This document shows positions 190-52,532 of a DNA stretch of 55,229 nt, one piece after another (within the stretch, counting starts at the first letter, position 1; each line of letters opens with the position of its first letter). The stretch covers positions 1 to 55,229 of the forward strand of contig JAUZRW010000032.1 of assembly GCA_030950085.1 (NCBI GenBank), in the 5' to 3' direction. The stretch comes from Anaerolineae bacterium (GTDB taxonomy: Bacteria; Chloroflexota; Anaerolineae; Aggregatilineales; Phototrophicaceae). The position numbers and the translations under genes were made by a program. The notes beneath the pieces were generated by a model, which had not been told where the DNA came from, ran no database searches, and was given only the letters and a program-made list of their open reading frames with translations.

Positions 190-250
190 GTAGGGGATGC
201 CCCATGTGTCATCCCATGATAAACGGGCGCACACGTGGGTACGCCCCTAC
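190..250. repeat. Composite GTAGGG-family repeat
   Basis: Starts GTAGGGGATGCCCCATG and ends ACGCCCCTAC, so the outer ends are inverted copies of GTAGGGG. The internal text 'atgtgtcatccc' and 'cacgtgggta' recurs in inverted or permuted form at 2421-2483, which makes these two a longer sub-class of the same family. Confidence 0.5.
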
Positions 251-1330: not shown

Positions 1331-1388
1331 AGGATTTAACTTTCTCGAAAGAATTGTGTACAGATAATTGGGTATGTATAATGATTAT

Positions 1389-1482
1389 TTGTTTAACAAA
1401 CTCTCTACGATAATTCTCTAACACTTGTCTCACTTTGCAATTTTGTGTGAGGCACGGTGAAACCCCGAAAGGGGCTTTTTTT
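1389..1482 (+). ncRNA. Three-copy structured element with terminator, copy 1
   Basis: A 94 bp sequence found three times in the window (also 2248-2339 and 29264-29353). In plus orientation it has the palindrome TTGTTTAACAA, about 30 variable bases, a hairpin CTCAC...GTGAG, and then AACCCCGAAAGGGGC followed by seven T. That last part is a textbook intrinsic terminator. Its T-run overlaps the stop codon of the Crp-like gene, so on the minus strand the same hairpin would end crp transcription. Whether a plus-strand RNA is made is inference; a terminator-bearing intergenic repeat is the minimal reading. Confidence 0.5.
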
Positions 1483-2223: not shown

Positions 2224-2247
2224 GGGCGCAATGCCTTGCGCCCCTAC
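2224..2247 (-). repeat. Short hairpin repeat (GTAGGG family)
   Basis: Reads GGGCGCAATGCCTTGCGCCCCTAC on the plus strand: a stem GGGCGCAA/TTGCGCCC with the family tail CCCTAC. It abuts copy 2 of the 90-94 bp element and is almost identical to the copy at 52509-52532. Confidence 0.6.
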
Positions 2248-7054: not shown

Positions 7055-8605
7055 TTAGCTCTCACAAGTTGCATCCCACGCCAAACGATAGAGAGTCATA
7101 TTCGGTTGACCAATATTTTGTGTGATTTTCGCATCTGTCGAATAGATTTCACATAAACGGGGGTCATTGGGGTCGCGTCCGGGTATTTGGTCAGGAAAAC
7201 CGAAAAAATACGTTGCTTGATTATCTTGTAAATATTGCCACATAGCATTGGGGTCATCAATGAGAGGAATCACTTCTGGGCTGACTAATCCGGCAACATC
7301 CAATATGGGGCGTGATGCAAAATAACCAACTGCCCCGATATCATGGATGGCGAGTAATTCATCGTCGGGCAGATTATCGCGTATCCAATAGGCGGCTGTG
7401 ACCATCTCACTATCAATGATTGCCACATCAACGCGGTAGATTTGTATACCCCACGCGACAAAAATCAGATAAATGACAATCGTTGATAATACCAATACAC
7501 GAACGAGAGTTCGCTGTAAAAATGAGCGTCGCGTCCACGTTATCAGGCTAATAGTGCCAACAACACCCATCACAATTAATGTTGGCAGCGCCGGCATCAC
7601 ATAGCGCCCATGTTGATCCCATGCCGGAAGGCGTTCGGCGTAGAGGGCTATCAATGCCAGTGACCACCACAACGGCAACAGGTAAAAAATCACCTTGCGC
7701 CAATGCTGCTGTGTGACTATTCGTGCAATATAGGCAAGAATCCCCACTAGGAGCAAAAATTGTCCGCCTGCGAAAATGGCTTGTGTCAGTAAATAGAAAC
7801 GTCTGATATATGCAATATTTTCGCGGCGAATCGCAAATTGCACAAATTTAGCATCGGCAGTATTGGGGAGAATGCCACCTGTCAGTTGCAGATTGAGCCA
7901 CAAATAAGGTGAAATCGCTATGCCGAAACCAATCGCTGAACCCACTCCCCAGAAAATCACATTTTTGAGATTGCCCTGCGGTTGGACTATCAGCATCGTC
8001 AAAGCAATAATGCCACCGAGTACAATTCCTTCGGGGCGTGTGAGGGCTGCCAATGCCGTGACAACACCAAAAATCGCGCCTCGTAGCAGCAAGGGTTGAC
8101 TATCATGATGGCGCTCGCTATCTAATTCGCGCCATGCAAGGAAAATCAGCAAAAGTGACATCATGCCAAAAAGCATCGTTTCCATACCAGCCGCCGCCGC
8201 CCATAACAAATGCCATGTCATGATAAAGGCTAATCCCGTGATGAGTCCGGCGTGTTTTTCAGGTGATTGTTTGCCTGTAACAAGCCTATCTGCCAAACGT
8301 GCGCCTAACATGGCAGTGACTGTCAATGCCGCAATGCCGAGTCCGTGTGTCCAGAGTTTATAGGGAATACGCAAAAAGTAGCCGATTGCCAGTAGCACTG
8401 TATACAGTGGCGATGTTGAAGCCGCACTCGGTTCGCTGGGGATGAAAGCCCATTCGCCGTTTAATGCCAGATTGCGTCCGTAAGTTTGATGAATCCAGCT
8501 ATCATCTAATGGGAAGCCGCCCCCTGCGACCAGCACATAGATTGTTACTAGCACTACTGCCAAGAGCAAAAAATAGCCATCACGCCTAGTTACGCTCAAT
8601 TGCAT
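7055..8605 (-). CDS. GT-C-type membrane glycosyltransferase-like protein
   Basis: 516 residues with about ten or more hydrophobic segments. The first loop carries GFPLDDSWIHQTYGRNLA and PSEPSAASTSPLY. This DD-containing loop with a TSPL motif is seen in a family of polyprenyl-phosphate-sugar-dependent glycosyltransferases. The C-terminal domain faces outside and has VGYFASRPILDVAGL. It would transfer sugars to surface polymers; donor and acceptor are unknown. The ATG at 8605 is preceded by GGTGGAG and overlaps the upstream gene by 20 bases; a GTG at 8620 is the alternative. Last gene of a long overlapping minus-strand run. Confidence 0.75.
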   Translation of the reverse strand: MQLSVTRRDGYFLLLAVVLVTIYVLVAGGGFPLDDSWIHQTYGRNLALNGEWAFIPSEPSAASTSPLYTVLLAIGYFLRIPYKLWTHGLGIAALTVTAMLGARLADRLVTGKQSPEKHAGLITGLAFIMTWHLLWAAAAGMETMLFGMMSLLLIFLAWRELDSERHHDSQPLLLRGAIFGVVTALAALTRPEGIVLGGIIALTMLIVQPQGNLKNVIFWGVGSAIGFGIAISPYLWLNLQLTGGILPNTADAKFVQFAIRRENIAYIRRFYLLTQAIFAGGQFLLLVGILAYIARIVTQQHWRKVIFYLLPLWWSLALIALYAERLPAWDQHGRYVMPALPTLIVMGVVGTISLITWTRRSFLQRTLVRVLVLSTIVIYLIFVAWGIQIYRVDVAIIDSEMVTAAYWIRDNLPDDELLAIHDIGAVGYFASRPILDVAGLVSPEVIPLIDDPNAMWQYLQDNQATYFFGFPDQIPGRDPNDPRLCEIYSTDAKITQNIGQPNMTLYRLAWDATCES

Positions 8606-10184
8606 AGAGAGTCGCTCCACCTAATTCAATATCTATTGGGGTCAAGAAATTTGGCACAGTCTCAAAGAGCATCGGGTCAGGGATACCCCCATTTTCGAGA
8701 ACGAGATAATCAATAGCGTAGCGTTCAGCAACTTCAAGCGCGATTGCTGGCGATTCGTTGGGGACAACGACTCCACCAATGCCGGTATAATAATACAACT
8801 GCGCCGGGTCATTAATCATCACTCGTGCGTTTTCTGGAATTGACTCGGCAAGTATTCGATAAAATTGAGGGTTACGAGTCGTGAAGCGTGCCGCAAGTGC
8901 AATTTGTAAGCTGAGGAAAATGATTATCAAGACAACGAAGCTAGAAAATAGCGGTTTGGCTATCTGTGGCTTCCATTTACGGCGAAACTTGACCACCCAA
9001 TCAATACTATCATCAATGCCCAATAGCCCTAGAATCGCCCAAAATGGCATTAAAGCAGCCGCAGCATGAAATAACCCACCCCTTACACCCGGAAACGGAA
9101 AAACTAGGGCAAATGCTAGATGAATGCCGAGCGCGAATATCCAGACAGGGCGCAGAAACGCATCATGTCTGCGTCGCCACAAGGCAATCAATATGAAAGG
9201 CGCGAGAACGATGATGCCTTCAATGGCGATGAAATTGATGATTGCCCCTTGTCCACTGAAAAGCCCCCATACACGAGTCTCAACAAATAGACTGCTACCG
9301 TCTGCGAACAAGGTTTCTGCTGAGGCATCCGGCGGATAGCTAAAAAGGTCATTGTAGCTGGTATACCATGCACCCTGCGTCCCACCAACGGGTAGCACTG
9401 TGCCGATGGTGTTCAAGTTGCGAATCAGCCACGGTGACATTGCAGCGAGATAGGCTACTGTAAATATAACGAAGCAGATAACCCGTTTTCGTAGGGGCGT
9501 AGCGTGCTGCGCCCTCTTTCTGAGCCAAGCCCATATGTCCAATGGGAAAAATAATACCGACCACCCGACTAGCAACATCATTAATCCATCAGAACGAATG
9601 AGGTGCGAGAAAGCCGCGAAGATTCCAGCGAATACCCACCAACGCACGTTATTTTTCTCTGATGATATGCCAAGTCCGATAAATGCGAGTGTCATTCCAC
9701 CGAAAAAAGCATAGGGCGCAAAAGTATCGGCTTGTCCCCAAAAACGCATGAAAAACCCACCAAAAAGGACAACAATTCCCGCTTGCCACGCATGACGCGA
9801 AGAACCCCCTAATCGCCATCCGAGCCAGTAAGCAAGCAAAGATGCTCCCCATAGACAGAGTGCCAGTCCGATTTTTGCGGCAGCATAAGTCGCGCCAAAG
9901 ATAACCATGCCGAGTGCAGCAATGAGTGTTGTTCCCGGCATCCAATACAAATGTGATGGTGCAGGGAGTGAATCCGATGCGCCGATGTATGTCCAAAGAT
10001 AATCATCGACAAAGCCATCGCCCTCAGCGACACGCACTGCCGCGTTATAGTGATAGAAAGAATCCGTATAACCCGGCTGTTGACTGAAATAGAATACAAT
10101 CACAAACGCTGCAATGAGGGAGGCAAGGACATAAATCCGTATGCCGAGACCTCGTAATCGAAATGGAGTCTGCTTCTTTTTCAT
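8586..10184 (-). CDS. GT39-like membrane glycosyltransferase
   Basis: 532 residues with repeated hydrophobic helices. The first extracytoplasmic loop (TDSFYHYNAAVRVAEGDG, then YWMPGTTLIAAL) and the overall plan fit the ArnT/PMT-type GT-C fold, with a small outer C-terminal domain. Substrates are unknown. The start overlaps the stop of the upstream gene as ATGA, indicating translational coupling. A member of the dispersed hairpin family (9491-9515) lies inside this gene and is translated as part of KRAQHATPLRKR (about residue 225), in a loop between membrane helices, without breaking the frame. Confidence 0.75.
   Translation of the reverse strand: MKKKQTPFRLRGLGIRIYVLASLIAAFVIVFYFSQQPGYTDSFYHYNAAVRVAEGDGFVDDYLWTYIGASDSLPAPSHLYWMPGTTLIAALGMVIFGATYAAAKIGLALCLWGASLLAYWLGWRLGGSSRHAWQAGIVVLFGGFFMRFWGQADTFAPYAFFGGMTLAFIGLGISSEKNNVRWWVFAGIFAAFSHLIRSDGLMMLLVGWSVLFFPLDIWAWLRKRAQHATPLRKRVICFVIFTVAYLAAMSPWLIRNLNTIGTVLPVGGTQGAWYTSYNDLFSYPPDASAETLFADGSSLFVETRVWGLFSGQGAIINFIAIEGIIVLAPFILIALWRRRHDAFLRPVWIFALGIHLAFALVFPFPGVRGGLFHAAAALMPFWAILGLLGIDDSIDWVVKFRRKWKPQIAKPLFSSFVVLIIIFLSLQIALAARFTTRNPQFYRILAESIPENARVMINDPAQLYYYTGIGGVVVPNESPAIALEVAERYAIDYLVLENGGIPDPMLFETVPNFLTPIDIELGGATLYAIERN
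9491..9515 (+). repeat. GTAGGG-family hairpin inside a coding sequence
   Basis: Reads GTAGGGGCGTAGCGTGCTGCGCCCT: the family lead GTAGGGGC followed by a short stem, very close to the intergenic copy at 48138-48162. It is in frame within the glycosyltransferase gene on the other strand. Confidence 0.65.
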
Positions 10185-11485
10185 ACAGCGACAGCTTCCG
10201 CTTGCAAGCGGTCATGCGAATCAGTCCACCACATTTTGCGTGTTATCAGCAGCAACATAAAAACCAGTATCGGTGTTGGTAGATAAATCGTCGGATGCTC
10301 AAATTCGCCATCAACTGTTAAGAGAAAATGCGCCCACTGCTGCACGAAGAAAAATGCTAAAATCCCCAAGACGTAGAGACTAGCCCCGCGTCTGCGATAA
10401 GTTGTTGTCAGCCAACGTAGATAAAAAATGAGGGGTATGAAAAATACGACAAAATGCGGTGATGCAGTGCGCGGCGCGACCAAGTGCGTAATCGTTAGAG
10501 TCATCACGATTGTCCACATGAAACGTTCTTGCTTACGCTGAATCAGCGCAACGAACCATGTCCACAGCATATAAATATAGAAAATTGCAGCGATGAAAAA
10601 TTCGATTATTCCGCCATAGCCACCATTGACTTGCCATAAACCTGTATCGGGATTGATGCCGAGCCATAACCCATTAGAAATCACCCAAACGGGTCCGCCA
10701 ATTTGTGTATAGCCTGTATAAAGCCCGACTTGCCCTAGCCAATCATTGAGCCATGAGGGTTGAAACGCAAACGACGCTATCATCAGTACAACGAAACTCA
10801 CAATGGATGAAATCACGAATTGCCAGTGTTTTTGGCGGATGCCCCATAAGCCAAGCAACGGCACAATCAAATAACCCATTTGCGGCTTAAGCGTACTCAA
10901 TGCCAATAGAACTCCGGCGGTTTTGTCATGTTTGCGCCCTAATGCCCAGATAACCCCAACTTCTAGCAAATAGACCAGCAATCCCGGCTGACCGAGAATC
11001 AATCCGCGTGCTGGAAAATACGATAAGAGCGTAAACAGAATCAGCCCACCTAAAACAAGCGGCGCAGGCTTCCACTGAAAATGGTCAAATAACATAATGA
11101 GGGCAATGATTAACGAGGCTTCTAGTAAGACCATCCAGATTGCCGATGCCCATGCGTAACTGATACCGACAATTGGCAATAGCAAGAACACGGTATAAAA
11201 GGGATAGGCAAAAAAGCCGGGGTCTTCTAATTCTGCGCTAGGTCGCCCATAAATTGCCCGTTGGATATTGAGACTCGCTTCTTCGCTATAAGGATTGAGT
11301 CCATCTACCCAATAAGAGCGTGCGCCTTCCCATCGAGATAGAAAATCATTGAGTCCCGGAAAGGGTTTGGTGAAAGTGTTATAGGTTACAATGACGGTTA
11401 CGATAAATATCGTTAGCCCGATAGCAAGAAAAATTAAATTGCGAATGAGGTTGTTGGATGAATCGTTTTTAGCTTTTACTGTCAT
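10181..11485 (-). CDS. GT87-like (DUF2029) membrane mannosyltransferase family protein
   Basis: About 434 residues, highly hydrophobic. The first outer loop holds FPGLNDFLSRWEGARSYW followed by GLNPYS. Later come FFAYPFYTVFLLLP, a GQPGLLVYLL segment and LALSTLKPQMGYLI, the pattern of the DUF2029/GT87 family of polyprenyl-phosphomannose-dependent transferases. The specific sugar is inference. The ATG start overlaps the preceding stop as ATGA, and its own stop overlaps the next start the same way. A TTG two codons upstream (11491) is possible but unnecessary. Confidence 0.8.
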   Translation of the reverse strand: MTVKAKNDSSNNLIRNLIFLAIGLTIFIVTVIVTYNTFTKPFPGLNDFLSRWEGARSYWVDGLNPYSEEASLNIQRAIYGRPSAELEDPGFFAYPFYTVFLLLPIVGISYAWASAIWMVLLEASLIIALIMLFDHFQWKPAPLVLGGLILFTLLSYFPARGLILGQPGLLVYLLEVGVIWALGRKHDKTAGVLLALSTLKPQMGYLIVPLLGLWGIRQKHWQFVISSIVSFVVLMIASFAFQPSWLNDWLGQVGLYTGYTQIGGPVWVISNGLWLGINPDTGLWQVNGGYGGIIEFFIAAIFYIYMLWTWFVALIQRKQERFMWTIVMTLTITHLVAPRTASPHFVVFFIPLIFYLRWLTTTYRRRGASLYVLGILAFFFVQQWAHFLLTVDGEFEHPTIYLPTPILVFMLLLITRKMWWTDSHDRLQAEAVAV

Positions 11486-29237: not shown

Positions 29238-29263
29238 CTGCCGTATATTCACAGAAAATCTAC

Positions 29264-29353
29264 TTGTTTAACAAAGTATCTCTGTTGACCTTATAAACGC
29301 TATCTCACACCTGTTATTTTGTGTGAGGCGCGATGAAACCCCGAAAGGGGCTT
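29264..29353 (+). ncRNA. Three-copy structured element, copy 3
   Basis: Shares the TTGTTTAACAAA palindrome, the GTGTGAGGC hairpin arm, the TGAAACCCCGAAAGGGGCTT hairpin and overall length with copies 1 and 2, while the variable part has diverged. Its hairpin CTCACAC...GTGTGAG is longer than in copies 1 and 2. The T-run is lost because the element runs into the lon stop codon, so here it can serve lon on the minus strand. It lies 89 bases upstream of the LysM lipoprotein start. Confidence 0.5.
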
Positions 29354-31796
29354 AATTTTCATCTTCTGGATTGCTATCATCTTCAAGCGCATCACGCTCA
29401 CGAAATTCTGGTGCATCGTGGAGCATAATCGCCATGACTTCTGGCATCGTTCGCACAAACTTGAGATTCATCTCGCGCAAAGCCGGTTTGGGGATATCAG
29501 CCAAATCTTTTTCATTGTCGGCAGGCAAAATAACATTCATGATTCCGCGCCGCCGTGCCGCCAAAATTTTCTCTTTTACACCGCCAACTGGTAAAACATG
29601 CCCTCGTAGCGTTACTTCACCTGTCATCGCCCAATCACTGCGAATTTTGCGCTCTGTGAAAGCAGAAATAATCGCTATTGCCAATGTAACCCCTGCTGAG
29701 GGGCCATCTTTAGGTACTGCTCCTTCTGGCATGTGGAGATGGATATCATAATTCTCGAAATCGTCATCCGACACGCTCAAATCAAGCGCCTGAGAGCGCA
29801 TATAGGCATAAGCAATTTGGGCTGATTCTTGCAAAACATCGCCAATTGAACCCGTGAGTGTCAATGAGCCTTTACCGGGCAGCAGTGCCGCTTCAATAAT
29901 CTGAATATCGCCACCGCCCGATGTCCATACCAGACCGGTGACAAGACCGATACTGTCTTCTCGGTTGAGTTGTGAGTCAATCAGATACGGGGGCCCCAGA
30001 TATTTTTCTACTAACTTGGGTGTCAGCCGTTTAGGATATTTTTTCCGCATAGCGACAAGGCGCGTAACTTTACGACAAACATTGGCAATTTCTCGTTCTA
30101 AGTTGCGGACTCCGGCTTCAAGGGTATAGTGGCGGATAATATGCAGCAATGCCCCATCCAGAAATGTGATGCCGCGCCGTGCCAGACCATGCGCTTTGAG
30201 TTGTTTCGGTATCAAGAAGCGTTTGGCAATTTGCAATTTTTCCTCTTCGGTATACGCCCGAAATTCGATGATTTCCATACGGTCTTCAAGCGCCTCCGGC
30301 AGAGGATAGAGTTCGTTTGCGGTGGCAATAAACAAGACTTTCGAGAGGTCATAGGGGACTTCTAAATAGTGGTCGGCAAATTCGTTATTTTGCTCAGGGT
30401 CTAGCACTTCGAGTAAGGCGGCGGCTGGGTCGCCACGATAGTCTTCACTCATTTTGTCGATTTCATCCAGCATAAAAACAGGATTCACTGTGCCAGACCG
30501 TTTTATCGTCTGAATGATACGACCCGGCATTGCACCAATATAGGTACGGCGGTGTCCACGAATTTCTGCTTCATCACGCACCCCACCGAGACTCACCCGC
30601 ACGAATTTACGCCCTAATGCCTCTGCGATACTCTTACCAAGTGATGTTTTGCCCACACCGGGGGGACCGACAAAACACAGAATCGGCGTTTTCATATCGC
30701 TGCCTGCCATTTTTCGCACTGCAATGTGTTCTAGTACGCGGTCTTTCACCTTTTCCAGACTGTAATGCTCCCGATTCAGCACTTTTTCAGCATGGCGCAA
30801 GTTCAAGTTATCTTTGCTGGCAGTGTGCCAAGGGATATCAAGCATCCAATTAATGTAGGTACGAATCACACTGGCTTCCGGCGCAAGCGGTGACATGATG
30901 CCTAGCCGTTGTAATTCATCTAATGCCTGTTTATGAGCCTCTTCGGGCAATTTCGCCTCAAGGATACGCTCCCGTAATTGACCTAAATCGCTGTTAAAGA
31001 CATCGCCTTCACCCAATTCCATCTGAATAACGCGCATTTGCTCTCGCAGGTAGGCTTCGCGCTGAAGACGGTTGATTTCATCTTGCACTTGATTATTGAC
31101 ATCATCTTGGACATTGATTGCGCCTATTTCGCGCTCTAAATAATCAACTACTTTCGCAAAGCGCACATCAATCAGGCGTTCATTGAGCAAGCCCTGACGC
31201 TCTTCTGTTGTTAAGGCGATAACCGATGCCAGCCAATCGACTAATTCAGATACACTAGCAATACTGTGGATATAATCTTCAATATCTGGATTTATATTCT
31301 CGCCACGTTCGGCAATGTCGATAAACAAATCAAGGGCAATCGCTTTCTGTTTTTCCAAGTGATTGATATTTTCGATACTTTCTTCGACAATCCGCGCTGT
31401 TACTATCGGAAAAGGTGTCTCTTGCACTAATCCTACAATTTCGACGCGCCGCCGCCCTTGTATCCCAAATAAGGCGCTTTCATCTTTCGTGATATCAATG
31501 ATAGCAATTTCGGTACCAATGGTCTCAAACTGCTCTTTAAGTGGCTTATCTTGTCTATCTTGATGATGATTCACGTAAATCGCCGTCTGGTGTTTTTCTA
31601 TTGCAAAGTGCGCCGCTTCAAAATTGAGAATCTTGTCAGAATCGAGGGGTAGCGGCACAATGGTATGCGGCAAAATCACATCGTTATTGGCGCGTATCAG
31701 TGGCAATTTAATCAAGTCGTCATCATTCGGTTTGGCGTTTTCAATCGCATCAAAGACGATATCGCCTGTGTTCTCTGTCGTTTCGTTTTCGCTCAT
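29352..31796 (-). CDS. lon: ATP-dependent protease Lon (LonA type)
   Basis: 814 residues, the expected LonA size. An N-terminal substrate-binding domain (about 30-220) and a coiled coil lead to the AAA+ module with Walker A GPPGVGKTS and Walker B VFMLDEIDKM, and then the Ser-Lys protease domain with the catalytic serine in KDGPSAGVTLA (Ser700) and lysine in GGVKEKILAARRRG. It degrades damaged and regulatory proteins in the cytoplasm. The start at the ATG of MSENETTENT is chosen, since the frame stays open 15 codons upstream without a ribosome binding site. A 13-bp perfect palindrome lies 24 bases upstream. Confidence 0.97.
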   Translation of the reverse strand: MSENETTENTGDIVFDAIENAKPNDDDLIKLPLIRANNDVILPHTIVPLPLDSDKILNFEAAHFAIEKHQTAIYVNHHQDRQDKPLKEQFETIGTEIAIIDITKDESALFGIQGRRRVEIVGLVQETPFPIVTARIVEESIENINHLEKQKAIALDLFIDIAERGENINPDIEDYIHSIASVSELVDWLASVIALTTEERQGLLNERLIDVRFAKVVDYLEREIGAINVQDDVNNQVQDEINRLQREAYLREQMRVIQMELGEGDVFNSDLGQLRERILEAKLPEEAHKQALDELQRLGIMSPLAPEASVIRTYINWMLDIPWHTASKDNLNLRHAEKVLNREHYSLEKVKDRVLEHIAVRKMAGSDMKTPILCFVGPPGVGKTSLGKSIAEALGRKFVRVSLGGVRDEAEIRGHRRTYIGAMPGRIIQTIKRSGTVNPVFMLDEIDKMSEDYRGDPAAALLEVLDPEQNNEFADHYLEVPYDLSKVLFIATANELYPLPEALEDRMEIIEFRAYTEEEKLQIAKRFLIPKQLKAHGLARRGITFLDGALLHIIRHYTLEAGVRNLEREIANVCRKVTRLVAMRKKYPKRLTPKLVEKYLGPPYLIDSQLNREDSIGLVTGLVWTSGGGDIQIIEAALLPGKGSLTLTGSIGDVLQESAQIAYAYMRSQALDLSVSDDDFENYDIHLHMPEGAVPKDGPSAGVTLAIAIISAFTERKIRSDWAMTGEVTLRGHVLPVGGVKEKILAARRRGIMNVILPADNEKDLADIPKPALREMNLKFVRTMPEVMAIMLHDAPEFRERDALEDDSNPEDEN

Positions 31797-48102: not shown

Positions 48103-48197
48103 TAGCTTTAGGACTTACGCAGTTGACTGTTATTTTCGGGCGCAGCACGCTGTCGCCCCTACGATTTCTAGCTTGAAGTGCGTAACGCCTAAGCTTA
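48103..48197. mobile_element. MITE-like element with nested hairpin repeat
   Basis: Ends are imperfect inverted repeats: AGGACTTACGCA (48110-48121) against TGCGTAACGCCT (48179-48190), 10 of 12 matching, extended outward by AGCTTTA/TAAGCTTA. A GTAGGG-family hairpin (48138-48162) sits inside. No open frame. It lies between yggS and yggT. TTACGCAGTT also occurs alone near 19.75 kb. Confidence 0.45.
48138..48162 (-). repeat. Hairpin repeat (GTAGGG family)
   Basis: GGGCGCAGCACGCTGTCGCCCCTAC on the plus strand; nearly the same as the copy within the glycosyltransferase gene at 9491-9515 when inverted. Confidence 0.6.
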
Positions 48198-48568: not shown

Positions 48569-48637
48569 GGGTTTAGCACGCTAAGCCCCTACGGTAATTA
48601 AGGTATTATGAGCGTAGGGGCAAGATGTATCTTGCCC
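48569..48637. repeat. Two hairpin repeats in opposite orientation
   Basis: GGGTTTAGCACGCTAAGCCCCTAC (48569-48592) and GTAGGGGCAAGATGTATCTTGCCC (48614-48637) are two GTAGGG-family hairpins arranged tail to tail with 21 bases between, in the gap between yggT and yggU. Confidence 0.6.
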
Positions 48638-52508: not shown

Positions 52509-52532
52509 GGGCGTAATGCCTTACGCCCCTAC
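52509..52532 (-). repeat. Hairpin repeat (GTAGGG family)
   Basis: GGGCGTAATGCCTTACGCCCCTAC: the same design as 2224-2247 with paired substitutions in the stem (GCGCAA/TTGCGC against GCGTAA/TTACGC), in the fabG to enoyl-CoA hydratase gap. Confidence 0.6.

What the first reader, a model, noticed from the sequence alone, without database searches (positions are those of the whole stretch)
9491..9515. Hairpin repeat translated in frame inside a glycosyltransferase gene
A copy closely matching the intergenic 48138-48162 element lies in the coding sequence and yields KRAQHATPLRKR in a loop between membrane helices. This indicates an insertion that was tolerated because it kept the frame and fell in a loop, and shows that the element family moves.
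Basis: partly seen in the sequence, partly recalled or inferred. Interest (0 to 1): 0.55.

Follow-up and report, generated by a model that had tools for sequence, protein, structure and literature searches.

The report
Mobile hairpin translated inside glycosyltransferase loop
A tiny mobile DNA hairpin has landed inside a membrane sugar-transferase gene without breaking it, adding a few amino acids to a loop; such in-gene hairpins are a known kind, but in this bacterium they sit repeatedly in this one class of gene, sometimes at the same loop in different genera.

Summary
9491-9514 is GTAGGGGCGTAGCGTGCTGCGCCC, with an exact twin elsewhere in the genome, read in frame on the minus strand. It belongs to the GTAG-tagged REP class: 338 pattern matches in this genome against 2 for the reversed pattern. 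Copies occur singly, as inverted pairs, as cores of MITE-like scaffolds (48138 is the core of an 85-bp one) and flanking an intact RAYT gene. The host gene is a GT-C glycosyltransferase; the REP residues form a loop between helices. Anchor-to-anchor spacing is 54 residues here, 39-51 in 35 others. Two orthologues in other genera carry different REPs in the same loop, which shows insertion better than the gap does. Eight of 46 PMT_2 genes carry an interior REP (two N-terminal hits dropped); in an 844-kb sample, 3 of 7 PMT_2 genes against 2 of 636 others (p about 8e-6). In-frame intragenic GTAG REPs are published (PMC3733652): a new member of a known kind, with an apparently new concentration in GT-C loops.

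The parts
9491..9514 (+). GTAG-tagged REP singlet GTAGGGGCGTAGCGTGCTGCGCCC, translated antisense as R-AQHATPL-R
8586..10184 (-). GT-C-type membrane glycosyltransferase gene, 532 aa, intact across the REP
   Evidence: no Pfam hit; 59 of 98 family genomes have a match at E<=1e-80 (own genome included)
48108..48192 (+). 85-bp MITE-like element (TTAGGACTTACGCA...TGCGTAACGCCTAA) with a REP core at its centre
   Evidence: RNA fold z = -3.05
48138..48162 (-).
   Evidence: 39 exact copies in the genome
190..250 (.). inverted REP pair (REPIN-like): GTAGGGG... at 190 (+) and GTAGGGGCGTACCCACGTGTGCGCCC at 225-250 (-)
2224..2247 (-). intergenic REP GTAGGGGCGCAAGGCATTGCGCCC
48614..48637 (+). REP GTAGGGGCAAGATGTATCTTGCCC
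52509..52532 (-). intergenic REP GTAGGGGCGTAAGGCATTACGCCC

Best explanation
9491-9514 is a GTAG-tagged REP (repetitive extragenic palindrome) that inserted into a GT-C glycosyltransferase gene. Single-stranded REP hairpins are presumably cut and pasted by a RAYT, a Y1/HUH transposase; this genome has one intact RAYT flanked by inverted REPs and a second with a REP inside it. Most insertions into genes are removed by selection. This one survived because the net change kept the frame, the antisense strand of the element has no stop in any frame, and it fell in a short inter-helix loop on the inferred cytoplasmic side, away from the periplasmic active site. The same filter explains why surviving in-gene REPs concentrate in GT-C glycosyltransferases and sit in the same loop in different genera. 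Shown: REP identity, in-frame coding, intact gene, loop position in the model, absence from most orthologues, different REPs in the same loop of two other genera, enrichment in PMT_2 genes, RAYT presence, RAYT-REP correlation across the family. Inferred: RAYT as the mover, cytoplasmic side, neutrality.
For: GTAG head plus GC-rich palindrome is the published REP signature (PMC2817692, passages; PMC3733652, passages and section 15). 338 vs 2 control matches genome-wide. RAYTs: C13 (NF047646 E=2.5e-15, below its curated cut-off) and C29, an open frame with inverted REPs on both sides. Across 98 family genomes the 60 with a RAYT hit have a median of 203 pattern matches against 24.5 in the 38 without (p=4e-10; holds inside and outside genus g17). 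Orthologue gap and spacing. Different REPs in the same loop: window AQHATPLR, L025 GAQRRAPLQ, L169 GAWHAVPLR. GT-C fold. Loop: residues 224-232 lie between helices 217-221 and 231-260. A second gene (C74) has a REP-bearing insertion of about 35 residues; 18 of 19 orthologues are shorter there, the 19th has a different insert.
Against: No close relative gives a nucleotide-level empty site, and target duplication cannot be tested. Spacing varies from 39 to 51 in relatives, and REP-bearing L025 has 42, so insertion is not a clean +8. With the general Y1 model (PF01797) instead of the RAYT model there is no overall link to REP number (p=0.71). The RNA hairpin in its coding context is not more stable than shuffles (z=0.20). 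Expression and function of the protein are untested.
Confidence: 0.87

Rival explanations
1. Recurrent or selected landing: the REP is not merely tolerated but preferentially enters, or is kept in, GT-C cytoplasmic loops, because of target choice by the RAYT or because the added loop residues or the hairpin in the mRNA help.
For: 8 of 46 PMT_2 genes have an interior REP; in the sample 3 of 7 PMT_2 genes against 2 of 636 others. The window-gene loop holds different REPs in three genera, and the C46 loop is hit in three genomes.
Against: A tolerance filter predicts the same pattern: variable loops, long fast-evolving genes. The RNA fold is not special. The inserted peptides differ in charge and sequence. 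No target motif was searched for.
Confidence: 0.15
2. The element is a remnant of a MITE like the one at 48138, trimmed down to its core, rather than a REP that moved by itself.
For: The commonest near-identical cores (ACAGCGTGCTGC type) sit in MITE scaffolds.
Against: No MITE flank remains at 9491. Its exact core sequence (TAGCGTGCTGC) was not seen in MITE scaffolds A or B. Solo and paired REPs outside MITEs are common.
Confidence: 0.07
3. Chance resemblance or an assembly artefact.
For: Fragmented assembly of 266 contigs; repeats can cause chimaeras.
Against: Both halves of the ORF align to the same orthologue end to end. Chance is excluded by shuffles and the reversed-pattern control. The same loop has REPs in two other assemblies.
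Confidence: 0.02

Closest known systems
Intragenic GTAG and CGTC REPs (BMC Genomics 2013, PMC3733652; passages and section 15 read)
   Same: GTAG-tagged palindromes of 20-40 bp, singles and dimers, a minority in frame inside ORFs; the author suggests neutrality in flexible linkers or loops; two recB genes carry different REPs at about the same site; GTAG repeats reported in Chloroflexi; REPs nested in longer palindromes noted.
   Different: The highlighted host genes are DNA replication and repair genes; the words glycosyltransferase, mannosyltransferase and membrane do not occur in the main text (its supplementary ORF list could not be read). Here the hosts are mostly GT-C glycosyltransferases.
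Rickettsia palindromic elements (RPE) in protein-coding genes
   Same: Palindromic mobile repeat inserted in frame into ORFs that likely encode functional proteins (as described in PMC3733652).
   Different: Different repeats, a different phylum, and longer inserts for RPE-1 (recalled).
REPINs and RAYTs (PMC2817692, passages; PMC3116915, search listing only; PMC8266576, abstract and outline)
   Same: GTAG head, palindrome, inverted pairs, RAYT gene between inverted REPs.
   Different: Those are described as mainly extragenic; transposition is not observed here.

Membership tests
GTAG-tagged REP | GTAG tetranucleotide at one foot of a GC-rich palindrome of 20-40 bp | tested here: met
   sequence at 9491-9514; signature
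GTAG-tagged REP | high copy number, scattered, mainly intergenic | tested here: met
   338 matches; 77 in 844 kb, 4 inside called ORFs, of which two (window, C74) survived inspection
GTAG-tagged REP | RAYT gene flanked by inverted REPs in the genome | tested here: met
   C29 ORF between REPs at 10737 (+) and 11523 (-); the flanking REPs are of another subtype than 9491, so cognate pairing is not shown
GTAG-tagged REP | mobility shown by transposition or by a precise empty site | tested here: inconclusive
   absence in orthologues and different REPs in the same loop; no near-identical empty site available
RPE-like in-frame palindromic insertion | repeat-encoded peptide inside an otherwise conserved, intact ORF | tested here: met
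MITE (scaffold at 48108-48192) | terminal inverted repeats, no coding capacity, several dispersed copies | tested here: met
   (10 rows for scaffold B in the sample, several being one copy seen on both strands)
MITE (9491 copy) | MITE terminal inverted repeats around the core | tested here: not met
   flanks
GT-C glycosyltransferase (host gene) | fold match to solved GT-C enzymes | tested here: met
   Foldseek best hits OST/AglB/ArnT/AftA, E 1e-7 to 4e-4, TMq 0.40-0.55; no Pfam or NCBIfam family hit

The most novel reading that the evidence does not exclude
Cytoplasmic loops of GT-C glycosyltransferases are a recurrent landing site for REP elements across genera of this Anaerolineae family, at a rate beyond passive tolerance, so that a RAYT-driven repeat acts as a continuing source of new loop sequence in enzymes of the cell-surface sugar coat.
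Probability: 0.15. Interest if true: 0.7.

Novelty: new member of a known kind. Interest (0 to 1): 0.4.

Why it matters
Repetitive extragenic palindromes are named for staying out of genes. Here a genome and its relatives hold a replicated set of in-frame insertions in one protein class, some at the same loop with different repeat sequences. That is natural material for testing how mobile repeats pass the protein-function filter, and whether they feed new sequence into membrane enzymes.

Tried and rejected
No intact transposase: a first search with PF01797 found one weak match, inside a long fused protein at C18, and suggested that the mover was missing; the PF01797-based comparison across 98 genomes gave no overall link. 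This was an artefact of the model: the RAYT-specific NF047646 finds RAYTs in 60 of 98 genomes and at two places here, and the comparison then becomes strong. I withdraw the first conclusion.

In-gene hits not counted as insertions: L151:16163 is not a palindrome. L165:118 and L145:4841 lie in probably false 5' ORF extensions. L137:2837 lacks GTAGGG and lies in a conserved-looking gene. L159:16580 and L160:6806 lack GTAGGG and were not examined. C202 (residue 7), C56 (residue 44) and C34 (residue 23) are N-terminal and may be upstream of the true start. The RAYT at C13 was below the score used for the 643-gene set but is counted as one of the two non-PMT_2 hits in the Fisher test; the window gene is the other. 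C79, C91, C237, C37, C243 and C137 were not checked against orthologues.

TM-count control: with a hydropathy cut of 8 or more helices, 3 of 31 multi-helix genes carry a REP against 1 of 612 others (p=4e-4); C137 falls just below that cut.

Independence of the C46-loop hits: C46 and L327 share a REP core, so a shared old insertion is not excluded there; the window-gene loop (three different REP sequences) is the cleaner case. A hairpin effect in the mRNA was tested by folding and not supported.

Papers: PMC3733652 read in passages and section 15; PMC2817692 passages; PMC8266576 abstract and outline; the others seen only in search listings. I found no paper reporting REPs concentrated in GT-C genes, by the searches only.

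Full report
Observation. The 24 bases at 9491-9514 read GTAGGGGCGTAGCGTGCTGCGCCC on the + strand. They lie inside ORF 8586-10184 (-), 532 aa, and give the residues R-AQHATPL-R at 224-232. The pattern has no match in 100 shuffles of the window. The genome (5.09 Mb, 266 contigs) has one other exact copy on C108 and 19 matches with one or two mismatches, most of them a related core. All 30 of the exact copies whose flanks I read sit in one of two longer MITE-like scaffolds. The window copy of that element spans 48108-48192.

What the element is. GTAG followed by a GC-rich palindrome is the published mark of REPs associated with RAYTs (PMC2817692 passages; PMC3733652). A general pattern, GTAGGGGC N4-18 GCCC, has 338 matches in this genome against 2 for the reversed pattern. 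Copies occur singly, as inverted pairs (window 190-250), and inside several MITE-like scaffolds, two of which, A and B, carry different REP cores at the same place. PMC3733652 already reports REPs nested in longer palindromes in other genomes.

The mover. PF01797 gave only a weak match inside a long fused protein. Scanning REP-containing ORFs showed a REP-associated tyrosine transposase on C13 (NF047646 E=2.5e-15, under the curated cut-off), itself carrying a full palindromic REP in frame. The NF047646 search then found a second RAYT on C29, an open frame between two inverted REPs. Across 98 genomes of the family, the 60 with a RAYT hit have a median of 203 pattern matches and the 38 without 24.5 (p=4e-10), also inside genus g17 (312 vs 125) and outside it (124 vs 20). 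With PF01797 instead there was no overall difference. RAYT-driven movement is therefore inferred, not shown.

The host gene. It has no Pfam or NCBIfam family. An AlphaFold2 model from 15 sequences (mean pLDDT 76, pTM 0.82) matches oligosaccharyltransferases, AglB, ArnT and AftA, so it is a GT-C enzyme. Neighbouring genes hit GT87 and PMT_2. The REP residues fall in a lower-confidence stretch between a helix ending at 221 and one starting at 231. Counting helices from a cytoplasmic N-terminus puts this loop, and the preceding loop at about 175-179, on the cytoplasmic side; this is inference.

Is it an insertion? Of 29 orthologues, none has these residues. Between two conserved anchors the window protein has 54 residues; the 35 other proteins with both anchors have 39-51, median 45; 4 of 40 lacked an anchor. 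The loop is variable, so this alone is moderate evidence. Among 41 orthologue genes scanned, 3 contain a GTAGGG hairpin: L025 (two places), L169, and an imperfect one in L173 (2 of 41 with the stricter rule). L025 and L169 come from genera g22 and g13, in genomes with 747 and 927 pattern matches. One REP in each lies in the very loop of the window REP, with a different sequence: AQHATPLR, GAQRRAPLQ, GAWHAVPLR. The second L025 REP and the L173 one lie in the preceding loop, on the same inferred side. L025 has a spacing of only 42, so the REP there has replaced rather than lengthened the loop. This is told against a simple +8 picture.

Wider pattern. In the first sample (843,816 bases, 643 called genes) 77 pattern matches were found, 4 inside called genes before inspection. 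A hairpin scan gave 9 in-gene hits, of which four survived inspection: the window gene and three others, all with PMT_2 hits (for C74 the score, 25.6 bits, is just below Pfam's cut-off of 26.1). The genome has 48 PMT_2 matches, which I reduced to 46 genes (two rows are one gene; one row has a broken frame). Ten of the 46 contain a GTAGGG hairpin, 8 after dropping two N-terminal ones: C137 (pair), C37, C237, C243 (pair), C79, C46, C74, C91. In the first sample 3 of 7 PMT_2 genes are hit against 2 of 636 others, counting the window gene and the C13 RAYT as 'others' (p=8e-6). With a cruder class, 8 or more predicted helices, it is 3 of 31 against 1 of 612 (p=4e-4). A YfhO-type membrane gene on C105 has two weaker hairpins.

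Two of these genes were compared with relatives. For C74, the REP lies in an insertion of about 35 residues; 18 of 19 orthologues are shorter there, and the 19th (L292) has a different palindrome-derived insert. For C46, L327 has a closely similar REP in the same loop and L329 has an inverted REP pair there; since the C46 and L327 cores are alike, a shared older insertion is possible. A scan of 19 C46-type genes found hairpins in 4 (one a poor match), not counting L327, whose REP has a mismatch near the GTAG foot; a scan of 19 C74-type genes found none.

Mechanism and verdict. GT-C enzymes have many short cytoplasmic loops far from a periplasmic active site (recalled knowledge of the family), so a tolerance filter can explain the concentration. 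Targeting or benefit is possible but unsupported: the mRNA hairpin is not unusually stable (z=0.20). In-frame intragenic GTAG REPs are known from PMC3733652, which stresses DNA repair genes and does not mention glycosyltransferases in its main text. What seems new here is the host class and the repeated use of one loop.

Noticed in passing
window 48108-48192; L052-L081, L127-L166: MITE-like scaffolds A (TAGTAC..GACCAA / TTGGTC..GTACTA) and B (TTAGG..TTACGCA / TGCGTAAGTCCTAA) each occur with different REP cores at the same central place, as if cores were exchanged or re-inserted.
   Followed up: partly
L127:9153-9791 and L260 (C29:10792-11367): Both RAYT genes carry REP-like sequence in frame in the same variable stretch between the HUH motif and the C-terminal part; the C13 copy is a perfect 28-bp palindrome, the C29 copy degenerate.
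   Followed up: partly
L100 (C18:8399-8722) and many family genomes: A Y1-transposase-like domain lies in a long protein (open frames of roughly 550-1,470 aa in many family genomes); the copy in this genome shows no clear HUH motif and looks domesticated.
   Followed up: no
window 1386-1480 and 2245-2339: 95-nt direct repeat, 91% identical, ending in a terminator-like stem and T-run, with a third partial copy at 29260-29358.
   Followed up: no
L292 (C74 orthologue) and L169: Other palindromic repeats of a different type seem to be translated in GT-C loops too (peptides such as PSPNSGRG and PRPPLPHREG).
   Followed up: no
G000:C139:939-1256: PMT_2 match broken by three stop codons, probably a decayed glycosyltransferase gene.
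   Followed up: no
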